A stretch of DNA of 33,551 nucleotides from Bacteroidota bacterium (GTDB taxonomy: Bacteria; Bacteroidota; Bacteroidia; Chitinophagales; Saprospiraceae), in NCBI GenBank assembly GCA_006226345.1, contig SBHD01000072.1, positions 1 to 33,551 of the forward strand, read 5' to 3'. The notes under the pieces were generated by a model. That model did not search any database. It was not told where the DNA came from and saw only the letters and a list, made by a program, of their open reading frames with translations. A program made the position numbers and the translations under genes. This document shows, piece after piece, positions 5,523 through 31,884 of this stretch. Each line of letters begins with the position of its first letter. Positions within the stretch are counted from its first letter, which is position 1.

Positions 5523-5942
5523 TTACCCTTCGAAATCGTGGCGGGTCACCATTTTGCAAATGATCGGTAGCTTTTGAGCGGCCTTGCGGAGTGACTCATA
5601 GGCCAGTTCCTGGCTTACCCCTTCGATCTCGAACAGGATACGGCCGGGCTGCACCTCTGCTACATAATGATCCAGCGCACCTTTACCTTTACCCATACGC
5701 ACCTCAGCAGGTTTGGAGGTAATCGGCTTATCCGGGAATATCCGGATCCACACTTTACCTTCCCGTTTCATGTTACGGGTGAGCGCTACACGTGCCGCTT
5801 CGATCTGGCGACTGGTAATACGCGAGTATTCCATGGACTTCAGGCCGAAGGATCCAAAAGAGATCGAACTGCCTTTGTAAGCCAGACCGCGGTTGCGGCC
5901 TTTCATCTGCTTCCGATATTTCGTACGTTTTGGCTGAAGCAT
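5523..5942 (-). CDS. rplP: 50S ribosomal protein L16
   Basis: L16 organises the A-site tRNA region of the large subunit. The 139-residue product starts [19 protein letters not shown] and contains [20 protein letters not shown], the L16 signature; the loop that follows ([14 protein letters not shown]) reaches the peptidyl-transferase region. Length is normal. A 142-base spacer separates it from rpsC and a 96-base spacer from rpmC. Confidence 0.98.
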
Positions 5943-22224: not shown

Positions 22225-22232
22225 TACATTTG
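22225..22232 (+). promoter_or_regulatory. Promoter -7 element of the deacetylase-acetyltransferase operon
   Basis: TACATTTG matches TAnnTTTG exactly and lies 17 bases before the candidate ATG at 22250. No clear -33 TTG was found at the right spacing. Confidence 0.5.
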
Positions 22233-22249: not shown

Positions 22250-23215
22250 ATGCAAATGATCTACCACCCATCCGTATTGCTGCACGATACCGGCAGCAGC
22301 CACCCTGAGCATCCGAACCGGCTCCGGGCGTTTCCGGCATTGGAACCGGTGGCTGCCCTGCCCGATGGCGCCGCTTATCTGGAATTGGTGCATCCGGCAT
22401 CCTATATCGATATGATACGGCATGCCTGTACCATCCGGCAGCCCCTGGATGGAGACACGGTTACCTCGGTACGGAGTTTTGAGGCAGCGGCAGCGGCAGT
22501 AGGTGCTACTATCCTGGCCATGGAACGGAGAGATTTTGCGCTGGTCCGCCCCCCGGGGCACCACGCCTACCGCGACGAAGCACACGGCTTTTGCCTGTTC
22601 AATAATATCGCTATTGCTGCCCAGCACGCCGTTAACAATGGAAAACGTGTCCTGATCCTTGATTTCGACGGGCACCTGGGCGATGGTACCATGGATATTT
22701 TTTACCGTACCGACCAGGTCCTGTACTGGTCGCTGCATCAATATCCTGCTTACCCGGGCAACGGATCGCCAGTGGAGATCGGGGAAGAGAATGGCACAGG
22801 CTTTACGATCAACTGTCCTTTGCCGGGCGGAAGCGGCGATGATATATTCCGGCATGCCATCGAATATATGTTACCGGCAGCGATCCAGTTCGATCCCGAT
22901 GTGGTGGCCGTGTCGGCCGGTTTCGACGGCCATCAGTTCGACCCCTTGCTCCAGTTGCGGGCCACCGGCAACTTTTACCACTGGATCGGCCAACTCCTGG
23001 CAACCACCTTCCCTGGTAAAGTATTTGCAGCCCTCGAAGGCGGGTATAATACAGAGGAATTGCCCCAATGTGTTTATAATTTTATCGCCGGCGTAAACGG
23101 CATAGCCATTCCACACCCCGAAACACCAACCACTTCCGGCCTTCGCACCTGGGAGACCTATGAGATTTACCTGCACCAGGCAGCGGGATTACTGGCGAAG
23201 TACTGGAAGTTTTAA
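22250..23215 (+). CDS. Histone-deacetylase-family (class II-like / AcuC-like) lysine deacetylase
   Basis: Zinc-dependent amidohydrolase of the HDAC/AcuC superfamily, which in bacteria removes acetyl groups from lysines or small amines. The 321-residue product carries the full active-site set: His104-His105 in RPPGHHAYRDEAHGFC, metal ligands Asp140 and His142 in LDFDGHLGDGT, Asp226 in SAGFDGHQFDPL and Tyr266 in EGGYN. The usual DxHHGNGT reads DGHLGDGT here. Start is the ATG at 22250, or 22256 two codons later. The gene ends 16 bases before a Pat-type acetyltransferase, so the two are surely co-transcribed and likely act on the same proteins. Confidence 0.92.
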   Translation: MQMIYHPSVLLHDTGSSHPEHPNRLRAFPALEPVAALPDGAAYLELVHPASYIDMIRHACTIRQPLDGDTVTSVRSFEAAAAAVGATILAMERRDFALVRPPGHHAYRDEAHGFCLFNNIAIAAQHAVNNGKRVLILDFDGHLGDGTMDIFYRTDQVLYWSLHQYPAYPGNGSPVEIGEENGTGFTINCPLPGGSGDDIFRHAIEYMLPAAIQFDPDVVAVSAGFDGHQFDPLLQLRATGNFYHWIGQLLATTFPGKVFAALEGGYNTEELPQCVYNFIAGVNGIAIPHPETPTTSGLRTWETYEIYLHQAAGLLAKYWKF

Positions 23216-23231
23216 TATAGCATATCATCAC

Positions 23232-25907
23232 ATGAAACGCATCCTCCATAAATTCTTCTACCCCGGTTCTGTAGCCGTGGTCGGTGCCACGGAAAAACAC
23301 GAAAAGGTGGGGCATGCGGTTCTCCGGAACCTGATGGACAGTGGGTACAAAGGAAAAATCTATCCGGTAAATCCAAAATACAGGAAACTGGAAGGACTGA
23401 AGTGTTATGCCCGGTTGAAAGACCTGCCAATGGCACCGGACCTGGTTGTTTTTGCCTTGCCAGCCGCCAATATCCCCCCGATGATGAAAGAATGCGGACA
23501 GGCGGGAGTGGAATGCGCTGTTGTATTATCTGCCGGGTTCCTGGAAGCAGGACCAGCGGGAGAAAAACTGTTTGAAGAGCTGAAAGTCACCGCCGCAGCC
23601 AATGGCGTACGCCTGATCGGGCCCAATTGCATAGGTATTCAGACCCCGCAAACGGGACTTAATGTAACCTTCGCCCCCTCCATGCCGCCGGCCGGCCGGG
23701 TAGCGTTTATTTCCCAGAGCGGAGCCATGGGTGCTGCCGTGCTTGACTGGGCTGCTGAAAAGCGGGTCGGGCTCAGCCATTTCGTATCGATCGGCAGCAT
23801 GGCCGACATCAGCTTTGACCACCTGATCGATTATTTCGGTACCGACAGTCGCACCGCCTGCATCCTGATCTATATGGAAAACCTGTCGGACGCCCGCCGG
23901 TTTATCAGTGCTGCACGCGCTTTTGCGCGGTCCAAGCCGATCGTCGTGTTGAAGGCCGGGGCCAGCCGGGAAGGTGCCCGCGCTGCACTTTCCCATACCG
24001 GCGCACTGGCCGGCAACGATGCCGTTTACGAAGCTGCGTTTCGCAGGGCCGGGGTGATCCGCGTACAGACTATTCAGCAGCTGTTTGACTGTACGCAGGC
24101 ACTAGCCACTCAACCCCTGCCGGCCGGCAACCGCCTCGCCATTGTGACTAATGCCGGAGGTCCGGCTATCCTGGCGACCGATGCACTGGACCTCCGCGGT
24201 GGCGCCCTGGCCAAGTTCTCGGCCAAGACAATGAACAAACTGAACGAAGTACTTCCCGCTGCCTGGAGCAAGGGCAATCCGGTGGATGTACTGGGTGATG
24301 CGTCCGTCGACCAGATCCGGGCGGCAGTACGGGCCTGCCTGCATGATAAAAATGTGGATGCCGTACTGGTTATTTTTACCGCACAAAACCTGACCAATTC
24401 CGAAGCCGTGGCCACAGCGGTTGTGGAAGAATCCAAACCGGTATATACCAAACCGGTGTATACCAGCTGGATGGGACTGCGATCAGTCAAGTCCGGCAGA
24501 GCAATCCTGGAAGCCGGCAAAATCCCCTGGTATCCATTTCCGGAACGGGCGGTGGTGACGTTCATGCATATGGTACGGTACCGCGAAAACCTCGATCTCC
24601 TGCATGAAACACCTGCCGACCTGCCGATCGAACTGGCAGACATCAACCGGACCGGCGCCCGGGTCGTTCTTGAACTGGCCAGAAAAGCCGGGCATACCCA
24701 ACTCGAAGAAACCGAAAGTAAAAAACTACTGGCCAGTTACGGTATCCCGGTCAATGCCTCCTACCTGGCTAAAACGGAAGATGAAGCCGCTGCTTTTGCC
24801 CGCAACCTGGGCTGTGCCGTAGCACTGAAGATCGAGTCGCCGGAAATCTGGCACAAATCCGAGGTGCATGGCGTCCGGCTGGGCATCGAAACCGAGTTCG
24901 GCGTACGGCAGGTGTATCGCTTCCTCATGGAAAACGTGCGCAAAAAACGACCGGATGCAACCATTACCGGCGTGACCGTGGAAAAAATGGTCAATACTCA
25001 GCATGAGTTGCTGATCGGCGGGATCAAAGACCCCACGTTCGGACCTGTGATCGTGTTCGGGCTTGGCGGCGTCGCCACTGAAGTCTGGCAGGACCGCGCC
25101 ATTGGCCTGCCCCCGCTGAACATGGCACTGGCCAGGCACCTGGTGGAAGGCACCCGTATCGCCAAACTGCTGCGCGGATTCCGACACCTTCCGGCCGTGC
25201 CCTTGCAGGAATTACAGAACGTCCTGGTACGGTTTGCCTACCTGCTGATGGATTTTCCCGAAATCCGGGAGATTGATATCAACCCATTCGCGATGAGCAC
25301 CGATGGCGGTATTGCACTGGATGCCAACGTTACCCTGGAGGAAGACCCCGTCGAGCAGCGTAATGCCTACGATCATCTGAGCATTCTGCCCTACCCGACC
25401 CAGTGGATCAAAACGGTTGAACTCCGCGACGGCAAAAAAATATTACTCCGCCCGATCCGGCCCGAAGACGAAGCCCTGGAAGCCGCGCTGGTGGAGAAAA
25501 CATCCAAAGAAAGCCTGTATTTCCGCTTTTTCGGTTTTGTGCCCGGTATCGACCACAAAATGCTGGCACGGTTTACGCATATCGACTACGACCGCGAAAT
25601 GGCCATTGTTGCCGTGATCGAGGAAAACAATAAACCACAGATCATCGGCGTGGTCCGGATCGTCGGAGACGGTTGGCGCGAATCCTGCGAATATGCCATC
25701 CTCGTTGCCGACGACTGGCATGGCAAAGGCGTTGGCAGCATCCTGACCGACTATATTATCGAGATCGCCCGGGCACAGGGCTATCAGAAGATATCCGCCA
25801 TCTTCCTGAAGGTCAATAACGCCATGCGCCGGCTATTCCAGCACAAAGGCTTTGAGATCAGTGCCGGGGAAGAAGGGGCGGATGAGGCGGAACTGGTGCT
25901 GAAGTAA
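23232..25907 (+). CDS. Pat/YfiQ-type protein lysine acetyltransferase (acyl-CoA synthetase-GNAT fusion)
   Basis: An 891-residue multidomain protein. It has a CoA-binding Rossmann domain (about 1-135, SVAVVGATEKHEKVGHAVLR), succinyl-CoA-ligase-like domains (about 150-460), an ATP-grasp domain (about 490-715) and a C-terminal GNAT acetyltransferase (about 730-891) with the acetyl-CoA loop DDWHGKGVGSILTDY. Order and length match Pat/YfiQ (PatZ), which acetylates lysines such as that of acetyl-CoA synthetase. Unlike my recollection of enterobacterial Pat, the synthetase half keeps a His in SHTGALAGND (His255), where NDP-forming acyl-CoA synthetases are phosphorylated. The frame is open 24 codons upstream; the ATG at 23232 fits the family. 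It follows the deacetylase by 16 bases. Confidence 0.92.
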   Translation: MKRILHKFFYPGSVAVVGATEKHEKVGHAVLRNLMDSGYKGKIYPVNPKYRKLEGLKCYARLKDLPMAPDLVVFALPAANIPPMMKECGQAGVECAVVLSAGFLEAGPAGEKLFEELKVTAAANGVRLIGPNCIGIQTPQTGLNVTFAPSMPPAGRVAFISQSGAMGAAVLDWAAEKRVGLSHFVSIGSMADISFDHLIDYFGTDSRTACILIYMENLSDARRFISAARAFARSKPIVVLKAGASREGARAALSHTGALAGNDAVYEAAFRRAGVIRVQTIQQLFDCTQALATQPLPAGNRLAIVTNAGGPAILATDALDLRGGALAKFSAKTMNKLNEVLPAAWSKGNPVDVLGDASVDQIRAAVRACLHDKNVDAVLVIFTAQNLTNSEAVATAVVEESKPVYTKPVYTSWMGLRSVKSGRAILEAGKIPWYPFPERAVVTFMHMVRYRENLDLLHETPADLPIELADINRTGARVVLELARKAGHTQLEETESKKLLASYGIPVNASYLAKTEDEAAAFARNLGCAVALKIESPEIWHKSEVHGVRLGIETEFGVRQVYRFLMENVRKKRPDATITGVTVEKMVNTQHELLIGGIKDPTFGPVIVFGLGGVATEVWQDRAIGLPPLNMALARHLVEGTRIAKLLRGFRHLPAVPLQELQNVLVRFAYLLMDFPEIREIDINPFAMSTDGGIALDANVTLEEDPVEQRNAYDHLSILPYPTQWIKTVELRDGKKILLRPIRPEDEALEAALVEKTSKESLYFRFFGFVPGIDHKMLARFTHIDYDREMAIVAVIEENNKPQIIGVVRIVGDGWRESCEYAILVADDWHGKGVGSILTDYIIEIARAQGYQKISAIFLKVNNAMRRLFQHKGFEISAGEEGADEAELVLK

Positions 25908-25976: not shown

Positions 25977-28772
25977 TTAACGCTGCACCACCACCCGTTT
26001 CACTCCTACCGGCCCGTTTTTATCCGCCAGTTCCAGCAGATACAACCCGGCGGGTAAATTCCGCACGTCAAGGCTGGCCTGCGTGCCGGCTTTTGTACAG
26101 GCCCGCACCGGTTTTCCCTGGGTATTATACAGCACAGCCTGCATGCTTTCCGGTTTACAATCCGGACAGGTAATGTAGAGCAGGTCGCTGGCCGGATTAG
26201 GCCGGATGTTCCAATCGATCCGGTCCGGCACTTTGGTCGGCAGGGCCTGTTGCACCAGTACCTCGGCCTCCCGGGTGCAACCGGCTGCTCCGGTGATCGT
26301 AACGGTATAGGTGCCGGGGGCTGAGACCTGTAAGGCGGCATCCTTACTACCGGTCGACCAGTTGTAGGTTCCGCCGGGTATGGTCGCGTCCAGCAACAGC
26401 ACATTACCGGCCGGAAGAGAATAGACCGGATCAAGGGCCGGAGTCAGACCGATGATGCCATCGCCATGCCAGTTTTGCAGGTCTTCCAGCGCCGGTACGA
26501 CCAGGTTGAAGATATCCGGGCAGGGATGCGGAATATCCGGATGGAAAGTAAAGGCCAGTTCCAGCCGGAAAAGATCCGAAGGCGCCAGGTCAAACGGGCC
26601 GTGTGAGGCTACCATTCTCTGATCATATGTAGGATAAACCACCGTGCAATTGGACCACCCCTGTGGGTCAGCCGGATTGCCTGAAAATGCATAATTAGTT
26701 AAATTCAGGCTAAACGGATTATAGCCGGTACCACCTCCTGTCAGCGGCGTACCATCCCGCCATTTACTCTGCAAAAAATAGTAAAACTCACCAGGGAGTT
26801 GCGGATCGGTGATACCTGGCGGAGGGGTTCCGAAACTCGGATTTATAAAGTACATGAAATGATCCAGGGACTGATTCAAAAAACTGACGGACTGCACCGG
26901 GATCTGTTCACCAAACCCCTCAATACCAGAGCAGTCATCATCCATTTCATCCTTGTTATACACATACCAGGCGTCTGCCTGAGGGGCTGAGCCGATATAA
27001 TCATCCTGGTAACAGCCCAGGTCCGGGTCGGTGAAAAAACCCATATAGGCGTCTGTGTAGGAGGTCTGGGAACGGTTGATAATCTCATAATCCACAAAAA
27101 GGGATTGATCCAGCACCGGGTTGGCAGAGCAATCGTATACATAAGCCATGATCTGGAGGTCTATGCCCAACGGGTCTGTATTGGTTTGGGTATGCACCAA
27201 GTCATCTGTCAGTACCCACCAGACTGCCCGGTCGCCTTTTATTTGCGGATAATCACCGTCGTAGACGTTGTATTTCCCATCGTTGTTGACGTCGACAAAG
27301 GGTGCCGGAAAATCATCCGGCTGTGATTGAACGGGAGTAAAGTCGAGGTTGTACCGTAGGTTCGGATTTCCTTCTCCCGGCCAGGTCAACAGATCATACG
27401 GCACCTGCTGGTCAATATCATTATCCTGCAAAAAGTCCGTACGCAAAGCCTGGATCTCCTCCAGGCTGACTGCCCACACCCGGTCAAAATCGGCGGCCAG
27501 GGTAGCTGAAGTACCCGTGCGGTAGTCGGCGCCAAAATAGGCAGGTCCATAGGTGCTGGCTGCCAACCGGATCTGGTTATCCGGCGCCAGACCGGCAATC
27601 CAGGGTGAAAAAGCGAAGAGAGTGGCCGCTTTTTGAGTGTCTGTCGTTATGAAGGTACTGTTGTCCCCATCGAAAAACAGGGTAGGCGACGCAAAGAAGT
27701 CTGCCTGCTGGGTACCGGTTTTGAGTTGGCGGTGCCGGATACGGGCGGGCTCAGATTCCGGGGCCTGCCCCAGAGCATCCGTGCGGATACAATGCAGGCC
27801 CTGTGCCCCCAAACCGACAACCAGGAAACCGCCATCCGGCATTTCAATCAGAGCGCTGCCGCCACCGGTACTATATGCCGCGGACAGACTCTGCGACCAG
27901 GCAAGTGTGCCGTTGGCATTCAGTTTGACCAGTACCAGCTCATCGTTGGGCCCAAGCCCCGTTGCAGCAAAACTGCCATCGGCAGTCGGGATGATCCCGT
28001 TGTATTGCCGATCCGCATATTCCCGGTACCATTGCTTCGTACCATTGGTATTCAGTTTCACGACAACGGCATTTCCCGAGGTATTTTTGCCGGCAAGCAG
28101 GATGCCGGATGGCGATGCCGAAAGGGCATGTGCCTGCAGCGGGTAAGTGAAGTCCCAGAGGACATTACCGGCAGGATCGATCGCCTGCACCTGTCCCTGC
28201 TCACCCGCCAGGACATACCCGCCGTTGTATTCGACTACCTCAGCAGGCGGAAAATCCAGTGGCAGGACCCACTGCTCCGACAGGCCGGTGGCAGGATCGT
28301 ATTGCACACTCCGGTAATACCTGCTGCCGAATATGATAAAGTTACCGGGTGCTTTTTCAAAAACGAACGGACGCGGATAACCGAGCAGCCCGAGGGTGTC
28401 CGGAAGTACGATCTCTCCTTCAAAGCCTGTGCCGGGTCTGAAAATACGCATCCGGATGTTCTGATCGGTGGCGGACAATCTGCGTCCGGCAACCAGGAAA
28501 TACGGCGTACCGGTCGCTGGTTCATATTGTTTCAGGATCGCGGACCACCGGAAGGTGGGGACGTCAAAAACATGGTATCCGGTGACCGTACCGCGGGCGT
28601 CCAGCTGAACCACCACCTGATCTGCCGTAACCAGATATTGATCGCCCTCCGGCCGGATCTGACAATAATTGTTAAGCGGAGAGGCAGGGTTATAACTATG
28701 GTGCCACTGCACTGTCTGGGCAGGCAACAGGATACTATGAACCATGAAAAGCAAGAGGTAGCATTTATTCAT
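25977..28772 (-). CDS. Large secreted protein with type IX secretion C-terminal domain
   Basis: A 931-residue exported protein. The signal peptide is MNKCYLLLFMVHSILLPAQ, preferred over an upstream GTG at 28784 and over an internal Met. Residues of about 20-330 contain repeated beta-propeller-like blades (VAGEQGQVQAIDPAGNVLWD, VVKLNTNGTKQWYREY, LVKLNANGTLAWSQSL). Around residue 490 is a Ca-binding-like VDVNNDGKYNVYDGDYP. A PKD/Ig-like module (YNWSTG, then YTVTITGAAGCT) precedes the C-terminal sorting domain: WNIRPNPASDLLYI, NLPAGLYLLEL and terminal KRVVVQR. That ending matches type A T9SS substrates, so it is exported across the outer membrane. Its role after export is unknown. Confidence 0.88.
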   Translation of the reverse strand: MNKCYLLLFMVHSILLPAQTVQWHHSYNPASPLNNYCQIRPEGDQYLVTADQVVVQLDARGTVTGYHVFDVPTFRWSAILKQYEPATGTPYFLVAGRRLSATDQNIRMRIFRPGTGFEGEIVLPDTLGLLGYPRPFVFEKAPGNFIIFGSRYYRSVQYDPATGLSEQWVLPLDFPPAEVVEYNGGYVLAGEQGQVQAIDPAGNVLWDFTYPLQAHALSASPSGILLAGKNTSGNAVVVKLNTNGTKQWYREYADRQYNGIIPTADGSFAATGLGPNDELVLVKLNANGTLAWSQSLSAAYSTGGGSALIEMPDGGFLVVGLGAQGLHCIRTDALGQAPESEPARIRHRQLKTGTQQADFFASPTLFFDGDNSTFITTDTQKAATLFAFSPWIAGLAPDNQIRLAASTYGPAYFGADYRTGTSATLAADFDRVWAVSLEEIQALRTDFLQDNDIDQQVPYDLLTWPGEGNPNLRYNLDFTPVQSQPDDFPAPFVDVNNDGKYNVYDGDYPQIKGDRAVWWVLTDDLVHTQTNTDPLGIDLQIMAYVYDCSANPVLDQSLFVDYEIINRSQTSYTDAYMGFFTDPDLGCYQDDYIGSAPQADAWYVYNKDEMDDDCSGIEGFGEQIPVQSVSFLNQSLDHFMYFINPSFGTPPPGITDPQLPGEFYYFLQSKWRDGTPLTGGGTGYNPFSLNLTNYAFSGNPADPQGWSNCTVVYPTYDQRMVASHGPFDLAPSDLFRLELAFTFHPDIPHPCPDIFNLVVPALEDLQNWHGDGIIGLTPALDPVYSLPAGNVLLLDATIPGGTYNWSTGSKDAALQVSAPGTYTVTITGAAGCTREAEVLVQQALPTKVPDRIDWNIRPNPASDLLYITCPDCKPESMQAVLYNTQGKPVRACTKAGTQASLDVRNLPAGLYLLELADKNGPVGVKRVVVQR

Positions 28773-28856
28773 ATCGGTATACACTTCTTTTAACCGGTGC
28801 CAGTACTAAATCGGGCGGAACGATAAACCCTGAAGGCCCGGCTTCCGTTTTAATTT

Positions 28857-29664: not shown

Positions 29665-31884
29665 ATGAAAACAACGTCACTATTATTCCTGCTGCTGCTC
29701 CCGTTGTACCTCCTCGCCCAGCCCGGCCCTCGCGTCGGTGTCGTACTCAGCGGCGGCGGCGCCAAAGGCGTAGCACATGTGGGCGCCCTGCGTGTTATCG
29801 AGGAAGCCGGTATCCGGATCGACTATATCGGCGGCTCCAGCATGGGTGGTATTGTCGGCGGACTTTACGCTGCCGGCTGGTCGGTTGATCAGTTGGACAG
29901 TATCCTCCGGGCAAATGACTTGTCGGTAGTGCTGCAGGACGAGGTTAAACGAGACTATCAACCATTCTTTAATAAGATTTACGGTGAAAAATACGCGCTG
30001 CGCCTCTCCTTTAAGGACTTTAAAATCTCCCTGCCACCAGCACTGTCGGACGGGCAGGAAGCCTTCAATTTTTTGAGCGCCCTTACCGACCACGTGGTCG
30101 GTATCACCGATTTCAGTCAGTTGCCCACACCTTTTCTATGTATCGGTACCGATGTCAGCGCCGGAAAACAGGTGATTCTCGAAAAAGGCTGTCTGGCCAG
30201 GGCAATGCGGGCCAGCGGCTCTTTTCCGGGGTTGCTCGCACCGGTGGAGGTGGACAGCCAGCTGATCACCGACGGCGCCGTGGTCAATAATTTCCCCGCC
30301 AAGGAGGTCCACGATAAAGGCATGGACTTCATCATCGGAGTGAGCGTGGAAGCCGATCTGTACAGTAAGGACGAGCTTACGTCCATGGAAAAGATCATTG
30401 AGCAGATCGGCTCGTATCAGATGATCGCCCGCTCACAGGATCAGTTAACCTATTGCAACCTGGTGATTCGCCCGGCACTCGACGAATATGGTGTTACTTC
30501 CTTCGATGCGATCGATACTATTATGGTACGGGGGGAGCGCGCAGCCCGGCTGCAATGGGATTCGCTGGTTTCGATCGCCCGGCTGCAGCACAGTGGCCCT
30601 GAAGCCCCATACAAACGACCCGATCTGGTGACGGAGCAGGCATTGCTCCAGGTCGGCACTGTCCGCCTGGAAGACAATCCGGCTATTACATACAAAGCCC
30701 TGGTCCGGAAATTTCCGCAGCCGTTCCCGGGTACGATCAGTTTCGACAAGTTCCGCGAAGGCATTGCCGCCCTGTATGCCACTGATAATTTTCAGTTTAT
30801 CGACTACCATTTTGAGCCGCAGGTAACCGGGCAACGCGAGCTGGTTATGCACCTGAAGGTAAAGCCGGGGTATGAGAGCAGCCTGCGCCTTGGTCTGCAC
30901 TATGACAAAGTGTACAAAAGCAGCCTTCTGCTCAACGGTACCTTCCGCAATGTGGTGTTCCAAAACTCCATTGCAGCACTAGACCTTATTATTGGCGACA
31001 AACTCCGCTATAACGCGCACTATTATGTCGGTGGCGGTCGCACGCCCGGCGCCGGCTTCAACTCCCGGCTCAACACGGTCGACCTGCCCATCGACCTGCC
31101 GGTCCGTATTGACATCGGCGACAGTATTTCCATCCAAAGCCTGCTGTTCAACATGACCGATCATACGCAGGAGCTGTACGCCAACCTGCTTACCAATGAA
31201 CAGTTTGCCCTGGGAGTGGCCGCCGAGCTCAAATACTTCAAGACCGCTACCGAGCAGGCGGTGGATTATATCAGCGAGCGCAATTATGTTGATGAAAAAG
31301 GCTGGTATGCCGGCGCCAGGGCCTTCCTCCACTTCGATAACCGCGACCGTATTTTTTTCACTCAGCGTGGCGCCCTGATCCGGATCGCCGCCCGTGGATT
31401 CAAACCGATCACTTCGCTGAAATACGATGATATCAGAGAAACACTGGGCTGGAACTTTGATATACAGGCCCGGCTGTTCCACCCCCTTTCCGAACATCTC
31501 ACTGCCGTGTTCATAGCGGATGCCGGACGCACGCTGGGTACGCCGGCACCACCCTACCGCTATTTTCTGGGTAGCAACAACCGCAACCTGATCAACAACT
31601 TCCGGCCGTTCACCGGACTGGCATTTGCCCGCATTTCCGGTAATAATCTGTTTAAAGCAGGACTGACATTACAGTACAAACTCCTCAAAACACATTACTT
31701 CAGCCTGACCGGCGAACTGGCCTCTCTCGGCGACGATCCCCAGCCGTTTTCATCCGGGCATACGCAGTTTCGAAGCATCGGACTGTCCTACGGGATCAGC
31801 ACGCCGCTTGGGCCGGTGGAAGTGACCTATGGCCGGTCCAATAAGGAAAGTGAATGGTACTTTACGCTGGGGTACTGGTTTTAG
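29665..31884 (+). CDS. Patatin-like phospholipase with outer-membrane barrel domain (PlpD-like)
   Basis: A 739-residue exported protein starting with signal peptide MKTTSLLFLLLLPLYLLA. The patatin domain (about 20-310) has the oxyanion loop SGGGAKGVAHVG, the nucleophile Ser59 in GGSSMGGIVGG and the catalytic Asp203 in ITDGAVVNNFP, giving an intact Ser-Asp dyad. A POTRA-like segment (about 330-415) and a C-terminal barrel of the BamA/TamA superfamily follow, ending in YFTLGYWF with the aromatic insertion signal. This order matches type Vd PlpD proteins. Substrate and whether the patatin domain faces outside are unknown. Terminated by the nested inverted repeat at 31888-31959. Confidence 0.92.
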   Translation: MKTTSLLFLLLLPLYLLAQPGPRVGVVLSGGGAKGVAHVGALRVIEEAGIRIDYIGGSSMGGIVGGLYAAGWSVDQLDSILRANDLSVVLQDEVKRDYQPFFNKIYGEKYALRLSFKDFKISLPPALSDGQEAFNFLSALTDHVVGITDFSQLPTPFLCIGTDVSAGKQVILEKGCLARAMRASGSFPGLLAPVEVDSQLITDGAVVNNFPAKEVHDKGMDFIIGVSVEADLYSKDELTSMEKIIEQIGSYQMIARSQDQLTYCNLVIRPALDEYGVTSFDAIDTIMVRGERAARLQWDSLVSIARLQHSGPEAPYKRPDLVTEQALLQVGTVRLEDNPAITYKALVRKFPQPFPGTISFDKFREGIAALYATDNFQFIDYHFEPQVTGQRELVMHLKVKPGYESSLRLGLHYDKVYKSSLLLNGTFRNVVFQNSIAALDLIIGDKLRYNAHYYVGGGRTPGAGFNSRLNTVDLPIDLPVRIDIGDSISIQSLLFNMTDHTQELYANLLTNEQFALGVAAELKYFKTATEQAVDYISERNYVDEKGWYAGARAFLHFDNRDRIFFTQRGALIRIAARGFKPITSLKYDDIRETLGWNFDIQARLFHPLSEHLTAVFIADAGRTLGTPAPPYRYFLGSNNRNLINNFRPFTGLAFARISGNNLFKAGLTLQYKLLKTHYFSLTGELASLGDDPQPFSSGHTQFRSIGLSYGISTPLGPVEVTYGRSNKESEWYFTLGYWF

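What the first reader, a model, noticed from the sequence alone, without database searches (positions are those of the whole stretch)
22250..25907. Protein-acetylation writer and eraser in one operon
A zinc-dependent HDAC-family deacetylase with all visible catalytic residues is followed after 16 bases by a full-length Pat/YfiQ-type acetyltransferase. B. subtilis acuABC pairs a different GNAT (AcuA) with AcuC. Here the eraser is paired with the large synthetase-GNAT type writer. A single-promoter module for reversible lysine acetylation is implied, next to the acetyl-CoA-consuming mvaS.
Basis: partly seen in the sequence, partly recalled or inferred. Interest (0 to 1): 0.65.

Follow-up and report, generated by a model that had tools for sequence, protein, structure and literature searches.

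The report
Deacetylase paired with synthetase-acetyltransferase fusion
Two neighbouring genes in a little-studied bacterium look like an on/off switch that adds and removes acetyl marks on proteins, and the enzyme that adds the mark may also make its own acetyl-CoA from acetate, which its well-known E. coli relative is reported not to do.

Summary
In detail: an HDAC-family deacetylase (22250-23215) is followed after 16 bases by an 891-residue synthetase-GNAT fusion (23232-25907). The pair is conserved in the family: 20 of 21 close HDAC loci carry it; in 100 related genomes all 25 with this HDAC also match the fusion, 22 side by side, though only 2-3 independent gains or losses underlie this. 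mvaS is incidental (1 of 18 relatives).

The label Pat/YfiQ type needs correcting. E. coli PatZ lacks the swinging-loop histidine of ADP-forming acyl-CoA synthetases; the window protein keeps both relay histidines (H255, H541), which align with H256 and H535 of a studied enzyme. The writer is therefore probably also a working ADP-forming acetyl-CoA synthetase. In two lineages both histidines are lost while GNAT and HDAC residues stay.

Best reading: a Saprospiraceae-type two-gene reversible acetylation module, comparable to Bacillus acuA/acuC, whose writer can charge its own acetyl-CoA and whose eraser releases acetate. Activities, targets and a closed acetate loop are inferred, not shown. New variant of a known kind.

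The parts
22225..22232 (+). TACATTTG, match to the Bacteroidota -7 promoter box TAnnTTTG (consensus recalled), starting 25 bases upstream of the HDAC start codon
   Evidence: such a box in 9 of 23 upstream regions of 130 bases (window included) against 1.1 expected from single-base shuffles; rows are related, not independent
22250..23215 (+). HDAC-family Zn deacetylase gene, 321 aa, the likely eraser
   Evidence: AlphaFold model pLDDT 92.6, closest solved folds HDA15 and HDAC6
22547..22564 (+). RPPGHH motif, residues 100-105 (foot pocket and catalytic His pair)
   Evidence: invariant in 24 rows; meaning of the motif from PMC11532494 passages
23216..23231 (+). 16-base gap between the genes
   Evidence: 15 of 23 measured pairs have 25 or fewer bases between the last matched HDAC codon and the fusion start
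23232..25907 (+). ADP-forming acyl-CoA synthetase / GNAT fusion gene, 891 aa, the likely writer
23994..23996 (+). codon of H255, swinging-loop phosphohistidine (aligned with H256 of N. maritimus 4HB-CoA synthetase), absent in E. coli PatZ
24852..24854 (+). codon of H541, ATP-grasp phosphohistidine (aligned with H535 of the same enzyme)
25440..25856 (+). C-terminal GNAT domain, residues 737-875
   Evidence: PF13302, PF00583; E820 (25689-25691) aligns with E809 of PatZ

Best explanation
A two-gene module for reversible protein lysine acetylation. Gene 1 is a class II-like Zn deacetylase that strips acetyl groups and frees acetate. Gene 2 is a fused enzyme: the N-terminal 700 residues are an ADP-forming acetyl-CoA synthetase with both relay histidines (acetate + ATP + CoA to acetyl-CoA + ADP + Pi, reversible), and the C-terminal GNAT passes the acetyl group to lysines, most likely that of AMP-forming acetyl-CoA synthetase (Acs). 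The writer can thus charge its own donor, so its output would follow acetate and ATP/ADP. Shown: the gene pair, its conservation in the family, the intact residues, purifying selection. Inferred: all activities, the acid used, the targets, co-transcription, and the coupling.
For: Pair kept in 20 of 21 close loci and in 25 of 25 HDAC-bearing genomes of 100 searched, 22 adjacent; the two sets largely overlap. No neighbour family is shared by more than 4 of 14 loci, and those 4 at differing places. H255 and H541 match H256 and H535 of an ADP-forming synthetase; both are kept in 20 of 24 Saprospiraceae-type fusions and 20 of 20 from other Bacteroidota families. The GNAT aligns with PatZ, E820 at E809. 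HDAC residues complete, RPPGHH present. dN/dS 0 to 0.056 in three close sister pairs for HDAC, synthetase part and GNAT part. Own genome has Acs with the PKTRSGK lysine motif.
Against: No activity is measured. The gain/loss pattern rests on 2-3 independent events, too few for a sign test (p 0.5). In 3 of 25 genomes the genes are apart, and in one of these (G049) only a GNAT-end piece of the fusion is seen. The synthetase part scores 554.1 against a cut-off of 567.15 for the acetate-CoA ligase alpha model. Acs and a sirtuin also occur in genomes without the pair. Fusions with both histidines occur without a neighbouring HDAC in the 20 other Bacteroidota fusions and the plasmid ones sampled, so the eraser is not needed by the architecture. 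2 of the 8 long gaps hold a -7-like box.
Confidence: 0.55

Rival explanations
1. Classical Pat-like module: the synthetase domain is only a sensor and scaffold, as reviewed for PatZ and Salmonella Pat; the GNAT acetylates Acs with bulk acetyl-CoA and the HDAC reverses it.
For: PatZ aligns over residues 3-878 (586 bits). In sister species L087/L088 both histidine segments are deleted in frame, yet GNAT Glu and the adjacent HDAC's residues stay and the synthetase part is still under constraint (dN/dS 0.056). L079 has Asn at both places with GNAT Glu and an intact HDAC elsewhere in its genome. So GNAT and HDAC can persist without synthetase chemistry.
Against: 20 of 24 relatives and 20 of 20 other Bacteroidota fusions keep both histidines, which a pure sensor would not need; the double losses suggest the two sites work together.
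Confidence: 0.25
2. Mainly a metabolic enzyme: the fusion is the cell's ADP-forming acetate/acetyl-CoA enzyme, and GNAT plus HDAC serve to tune the fusion itself.
For: No acetate kinase at E 1e-30 in any of 37 same-genus genomes searched, own included, and the fusion is the only full-length match of its kind in the genome.
Against: Acs is present; 21 of 42 same-genus genomes show no such HDAC and 20 of 42 no such fusion (some genomes are incomplete); decayed synthetase sites coexist with conserved GNAT and HDAC.
Confidence: 0.15
3. Small-molecule acetylation cycle: HDAC and GNAT act on polyamines or another amine, not on proteins.
For: The HDAC superfamily includes polyamine deacetylases, and RPPGHH is also found in them (PMC11532494 passages).
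Against: The gatekeeper place is Leu, Met or Val in 21 of 21 close rows, never Glu; closest solved folds are HDA15 and HDAC6; the GNAT matches the protein acetyltransferases Pat (69.4 bits, far below that model's cut-off of 460) and PatZ.
Confidence: 0.05

Closest known systems
Bacillus subtilis acuABC operon (AcuA writer, AcuC eraser of AcsA)
   Same: GNAT writer and HDAC-family eraser in one operon (PMC13121692 passages; PMC8556138 passages).
   Different: AcuA is a small GNAT of another type; AcuC falls in cluster 2 beside class I HDACs (PMC11532494 section 6); here there are two genes only, with no third gene in the place of acuB and acs not adjacent; the writer carries a synthetase domain.
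E. coli PatZ (YfiQ) and Salmonella Pat, type I GNATs
   Same: Same domain order, alignment over nearly the full length, GNAT Glu kept (PatZ only, Salmonella Pat not aligned).
   Different: PatZ lacks the swinging-loop histidine; the type is reviewed as synthetase-inactive (PMC8556138 section 7). The window protein has both relay histidines.
ADP-forming acyl-CoA synthetases (N. maritimus 4HB-CoA synthetase 8WZU; NDP-forming acetyl-CoA synthetase 4XYL)
   Same: Same subdomains and both phosphohistidines.
   Different: The solved chains end before a GNAT domain; whether an HDAC gene lies beside them was not examined.
Rhodopseudomonas palustris RpPat/KatA with LdaA
   Same: A GNAT and an HDAC-type deacetylase oppose each other on Acs and related ligases (PMC6640162 passages).
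   Different: RpPat is listed among type IV, GNAT-only enzymes in PMC8556138 (passages); gene adjacency not examined here.

Membership tests
Classical Zn-dependent deacetylase (HDAC superfamily) | His pair, Asp-His-Asp zinc ligands, catalytic Tyr | tested here: met
   H104-H105, D140, H142, D226, Y266 invariant in 24 rows
Classical Zn-dependent deacetylase (HDAC superfamily) | Arginase-deacetylase fold | tested here: met
   AlphaFold pLDDT 92.6; Foldseek to HDA15 E 8e-29, TM 0.86
Classical Zn-dependent deacetylase (HDAC superfamily) | Lysine deacetylase activity | not testable with these tools
   needs an assay
Type I Pat (PatZ/YfiQ) | N-terminal NDP-forming synthetase domain plus C-terminal GNAT | tested here: met
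Type I Pat (PatZ/YfiQ) | Catalytic histidine of the synthetase missing, domain inactive | tested here: not met
   H255 present, PatZ has a gap there; definition from PMC8556138 section 7. Inactivity itself was not tested
ADP-forming acyl-CoA synthetase (ACD superfamily) | Both relay histidines | tested here: met
   H255, H541 align with H256, H535 of 8WZU
ADP-forming acyl-CoA synthetase (ACD superfamily) | NCBIfam TIGR02717 (acetate-CoA ligase alpha) score over its curated cut-off | tested here: not met
   554.1 bits against 567.15; so it is not filed as that equivalog
ADP-forming acyl-CoA synthetase (ACD superfamily) | ADP-forming synthetase activity | not testable with these tools
   needs an assay
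acuAC-type writer-eraser operon | GNAT and HDAC genes adjacent, same strand, conserved | tested here: met
   within the family only
acuAC-type writer-eraser operon | acs gene next to the operon | tested here: not met
   acs lies on another contig, C366
acuAC-type writer-eraser operon | Writer and eraser act on Acs | not testable with these tools
   Acs with PKTRSGK is present; action untested

The most novel reading that the evidence does not exclude
The operon encodes a closed acetyl cycle: the deacetylase releases acetate from proteins, the synthetase half of the partner re-activates that acetate with ATP to ADP, and the fused GNAT puts it back, possibly by channelling. Because the synthetase step is reversible, protein acetylation would read the ATP/ADP and acetate levels directly and would run without Acs or bulk acetyl-CoA. 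PatZ-type writers would then be decayed descendants of such self-charging enzymes, with the same decay seen in two Saprospiraceae lineages that lost both histidines and begun in a third that lost one.
Probability: 0.3. Interest if true: 0.72.

Novelty: new variant of a known kind. Interest (0 to 1): 0.5.

Why it matters
A review describes the large bacterial acetyltransferases as carrying an inactive synthetase domain (PMC8556138 section 7). Here, in 20 of 24 close relatives, in 20 of 20 fusions sampled from other Bacteroidota families, and in 7 of 8 sampled plasmid-borne homologues from cyanobacteria and proteobacteria, the swinging-loop histidine is present. If active, protein acetylation would be fed by a dedicated, reversible, energy-linked acetate step beside its own eraser, and the origin of PatZ would have an explanation. 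Two genes can be tested in a laboratory E. coli strain.

Tried and rejected
mvaS as a functional partner: rejected, found next to the pair in 1 of 18 relatives with at least 2.3 kb upstream of the HDAC. A larger conserved operon: rejected; among 14 loci (window included) the most widespread neighbour family is in 4, at differing places and strands, one other family joins three loci of one clade at the same place, and mvaS joins the window and L010 (12 largest clusters printed). A phylum-wide pair: rejected; in a sample of 395 genomes 9 others have both a 36-49% HDAC (E 1e-35) and a fusion, none adjacent; 11 have the fusion without such an HDAC and 17 such an HDAC without the fusion (my tally from the listed places; more distant relatives are left out by the thresholds). 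HDAC next to fusions on plasmids: none found by tblastn at E 1e-3 in 8 sampled flanks of 2-2.5 kb, out of 258 matching records. Guilt by association from the most distant pair (L027, filed under Pacearchaeota): three neighbours scanned, no Pfam family, one weak NosD-like NCBIfam hit. Independent gain/loss test on an Acs tree of 35 genomes (G002 left out of the test): HDAC and fusion always change together, but only 2-3 independent events, p 0.5. Distance correlation of HDAC and fusion is 0.85, but HDAC against Acs is 0.84, so it shows shared descent and no special co-evolution (14 genomes). dN/dS in two further pairs was set aside: L022/L024 mostly saturated, L011/L013 near saturation with 0.18, 0.30 and 0.12 for HDAC, synthetase part and GNAT part. 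Sigma-70 promoter and terminator scan: nothing useful, no terminator found. Papers: in the listings (titles and abstract starts of the top-ranked papers only) none names this pair; only the papers cited were opened, in passages or single sections.
Full report
What is there. The window is contig C178 of a 5.2 Mb, 410-contig genome; record titles of most close relatives name Saprospiraceae or Bacteroidota. The HDAC gene runs 22250-23215 and the fusion gene 23232-25907, both on the + strand, 16 bases apart. The next large gene downstream (25977-28784) is on the other strand and carries a T9SS sorting tail; mvaS upstream is divergent. The unit is therefore two genes.

The eraser. Pfam Hist_deacetyl E 1.7e-70. 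The catalytic residues and RPPGHH are invariant in 24 aligned rows and present in four further relatives checked. PMC11532494 (abstract, section 6 and passages) ties RPPXHH to enzymes that remove acetyl but not longer groups, and a gatekeeper Glu to polyamine selectivity. Here the gatekeeper place, read from the alignment with HDAC6 chains, is Leu233; it is Leu, Met or Val in all 21 close rows. The predicted fold (pLDDT 92.6) is nearest to plant HDA15 and HDAC6. These points lean to a protein deacetylase; they do not prove it. The genome has a second HDAC-family gene on C190.

The writer. The protein aligns with E. coli PatZ over residues 3-878 (586 bits; the PDB chain 9it0, and PatZ itself), and E820 falls on PatZ E809. 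But in a key respect the first 700 residues resemble true ADP-forming synthetases. PMC11494057 (passages) names H535 (first phosphate acceptor) and H256 (swinging loop) of the N. maritimus enzyme; by residue count in the alignment these fall on H541 and H255. PatZ keeps the first but has a gap at the second. The review PMC8556138 (section 7) describes type I and II enzymes as lacking synthetase activity, for type II by absence of the catalytic histidine 'as described for class I'. In the predicted model the stretch 251-260 has low confidence (mean 56), as a mobile loop would, though low confidence has other causes. Against a full match: the NCBIfam acetate-CoA ligase alpha model is just missed (554.1 against 567.15).

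How general. Of 24 fusions of the Saprospiraceae type that span both places, 20 keep both histidines (one, L027, is filed under an archaeal bin, two come from genomes where the genes are apart, one from a genome where the HDAC side is cut off). Exceptions: L087 and L088, near-identical sisters, have both segments deleted in frame, with GNAT Glu and the adjacent HDAC's residues kept; L079 has Asn at both, with GNAT Glu and an HDAC with all residues kept but on another contig; L021 has Tyr at the second, with an intact HDAC, its GNAT being cut off by the contig end. Incomplete fusions were dropped from this count (L019, L009, L081, L085, L046), as were two proteins without GNAT (L084, L086). Of 20 fusions from other Bacteroidota families 20 keep both histidines, and 19 keep the GNAT Glu. 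Of 8 plasmid homologues sampled from 258 records, 7 keep the loop histidine (one of these, L196, has a broken frame); Providencia lacks it like E. coli. So the missing histidine looks like a feature of the PatZ branch and of scattered decayed lineages, not of the architecture as a whole; the plasmid sample is small.

The pair. A scan of public genomes gave 28 loci; 21 have an HDAC at least 48% identical, and 20 of these have the fusion downstream (L008 has not); the seven archaeal HDACs at 32-39% have none. In 100 related genomes, many of them the same as those loci, the HDAC (E 1e-20) is found in 25 and the fusion (E 1e-40) in 27; all 25 are among the 27. In G049 only a GNAT-end piece is seen. 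The two extras are G002, whose fusion is cut by a contig end on the HDAC side, and G067, a synthetase without GNAT. By group: 21 of 42 same-genus genomes, 4 of 19 in other genera of the family, 0 of 39 in other families of the order. In 22 of 25 the genes are adjacent (one up to a contig break, one with a 1 kb insert); in G020, G049 and G056 they are apart. On an Acs tree of 35 genomes the two genes change state together, but only 2-3 independent events are resolved. Elsewhere in the phylum the two genes, where both occur, are not adjacent (0 of 9).

Expression. TACATTTG, a match to the Bacteroidota -7 box (consensus recalled), ends 17 bases before the HDAC start codon; such boxes lie upstream in 9 of 23 regions against 1.1 expected by single-base shuffles. 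Related rows are not independent. 15 of 23 gaps between the genes are 25 bases or shorter (measured from match ends, so approximate) and leave little room for a promoter; 8 are 138-1002 bases and 2 of these hold a -7-like box. This favours one transcript in most relatives, the window included, not in all.

Selection. In three close sister pairs dN/dS is 0.003-0.032 for HDAC, 0.013-0.056 for the synthetase part and 0-0.032 for GNAT (two more pairs were too far apart, see Tried and rejected). In the pair with both histidine segments deleted the synthetase part is still constrained (0.056), as a scaffold or sensor would be.

Setting. The genome has AMP-forming Acs with the PKTRSGK motif and a sirtuin gene (partial, at a contig edge), but no acetate kinase at E 1e-30; none of 37 same-genus genomes searched has one, against 4 of 60 in the whole call. 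Acs is in 54 of 60 and a sirtuin in 56 of 60 genomes, with or without the pair. Acs is thus an available target but not one whose presence follows the pair. That Acs lysine acetylation is a common job of such systems is from PMC6640162 and PMC13121692 (passages).

Reading. The best account is an acuA/acuC-like writer-eraser module built from other parts: a class II-like HDAC and a fusion that can probably make its own acetyl-CoA. HDAC chemistry yields acetate, a likely substrate of the other gene's synthetase half, so a local acetate cycle is possible but not shown. In Bacillus, AcuB is the energy sensor of the acu operon (PMC13121692, title, abstract start and passages); here the reversible, ADP-forming half could take that role. 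The loss of both histidines in two lineages with GNAT and HDAC kept suggests that writing and erasing are the constant core and that self-charging is an extra which most lineages keep.

Verdict. Real, conserved within a family, and a correction to the label given. A new variant of a known kind; the bold part, a self-charging writer with its own eraser, is directly testable.

Noticed in passing
L087, L088 (fusion), G032 and G025: Fusion proteins of about 794 aa with in-frame loss of both relay-histidine segments, still next to an intact HDAC: a snapshot of PatZ-like decay.
   Followed up: yes
L027 5001-8640: A contig filed under Candidatus Pacearchaeota holds the same HDAC-fusion order at 48 and 46% identity, with a 221-aa unknown gene overlapping the fusion's end: transfer or misbinning.
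   Followed up: partly
L060 (G020) 5538-5669: A second piece of a fusion's C-terminus lies downstream of the full copy, in a genome where HDAC and fusion are apart.
   Followed up: no
L028-L033: Methanosarcinaceae loci with two HDAC-family genes in tandem.
   Followed up: no
L193, L194, L195: Plasmid-borne fusions of Variovorax and Sinorhizobium sit beside universal stress protein genes.
   Followed up: no
window 29665-31884: Patatin-like phospholipase with a C-terminal Omp85-type barrel.
   Followed up: no
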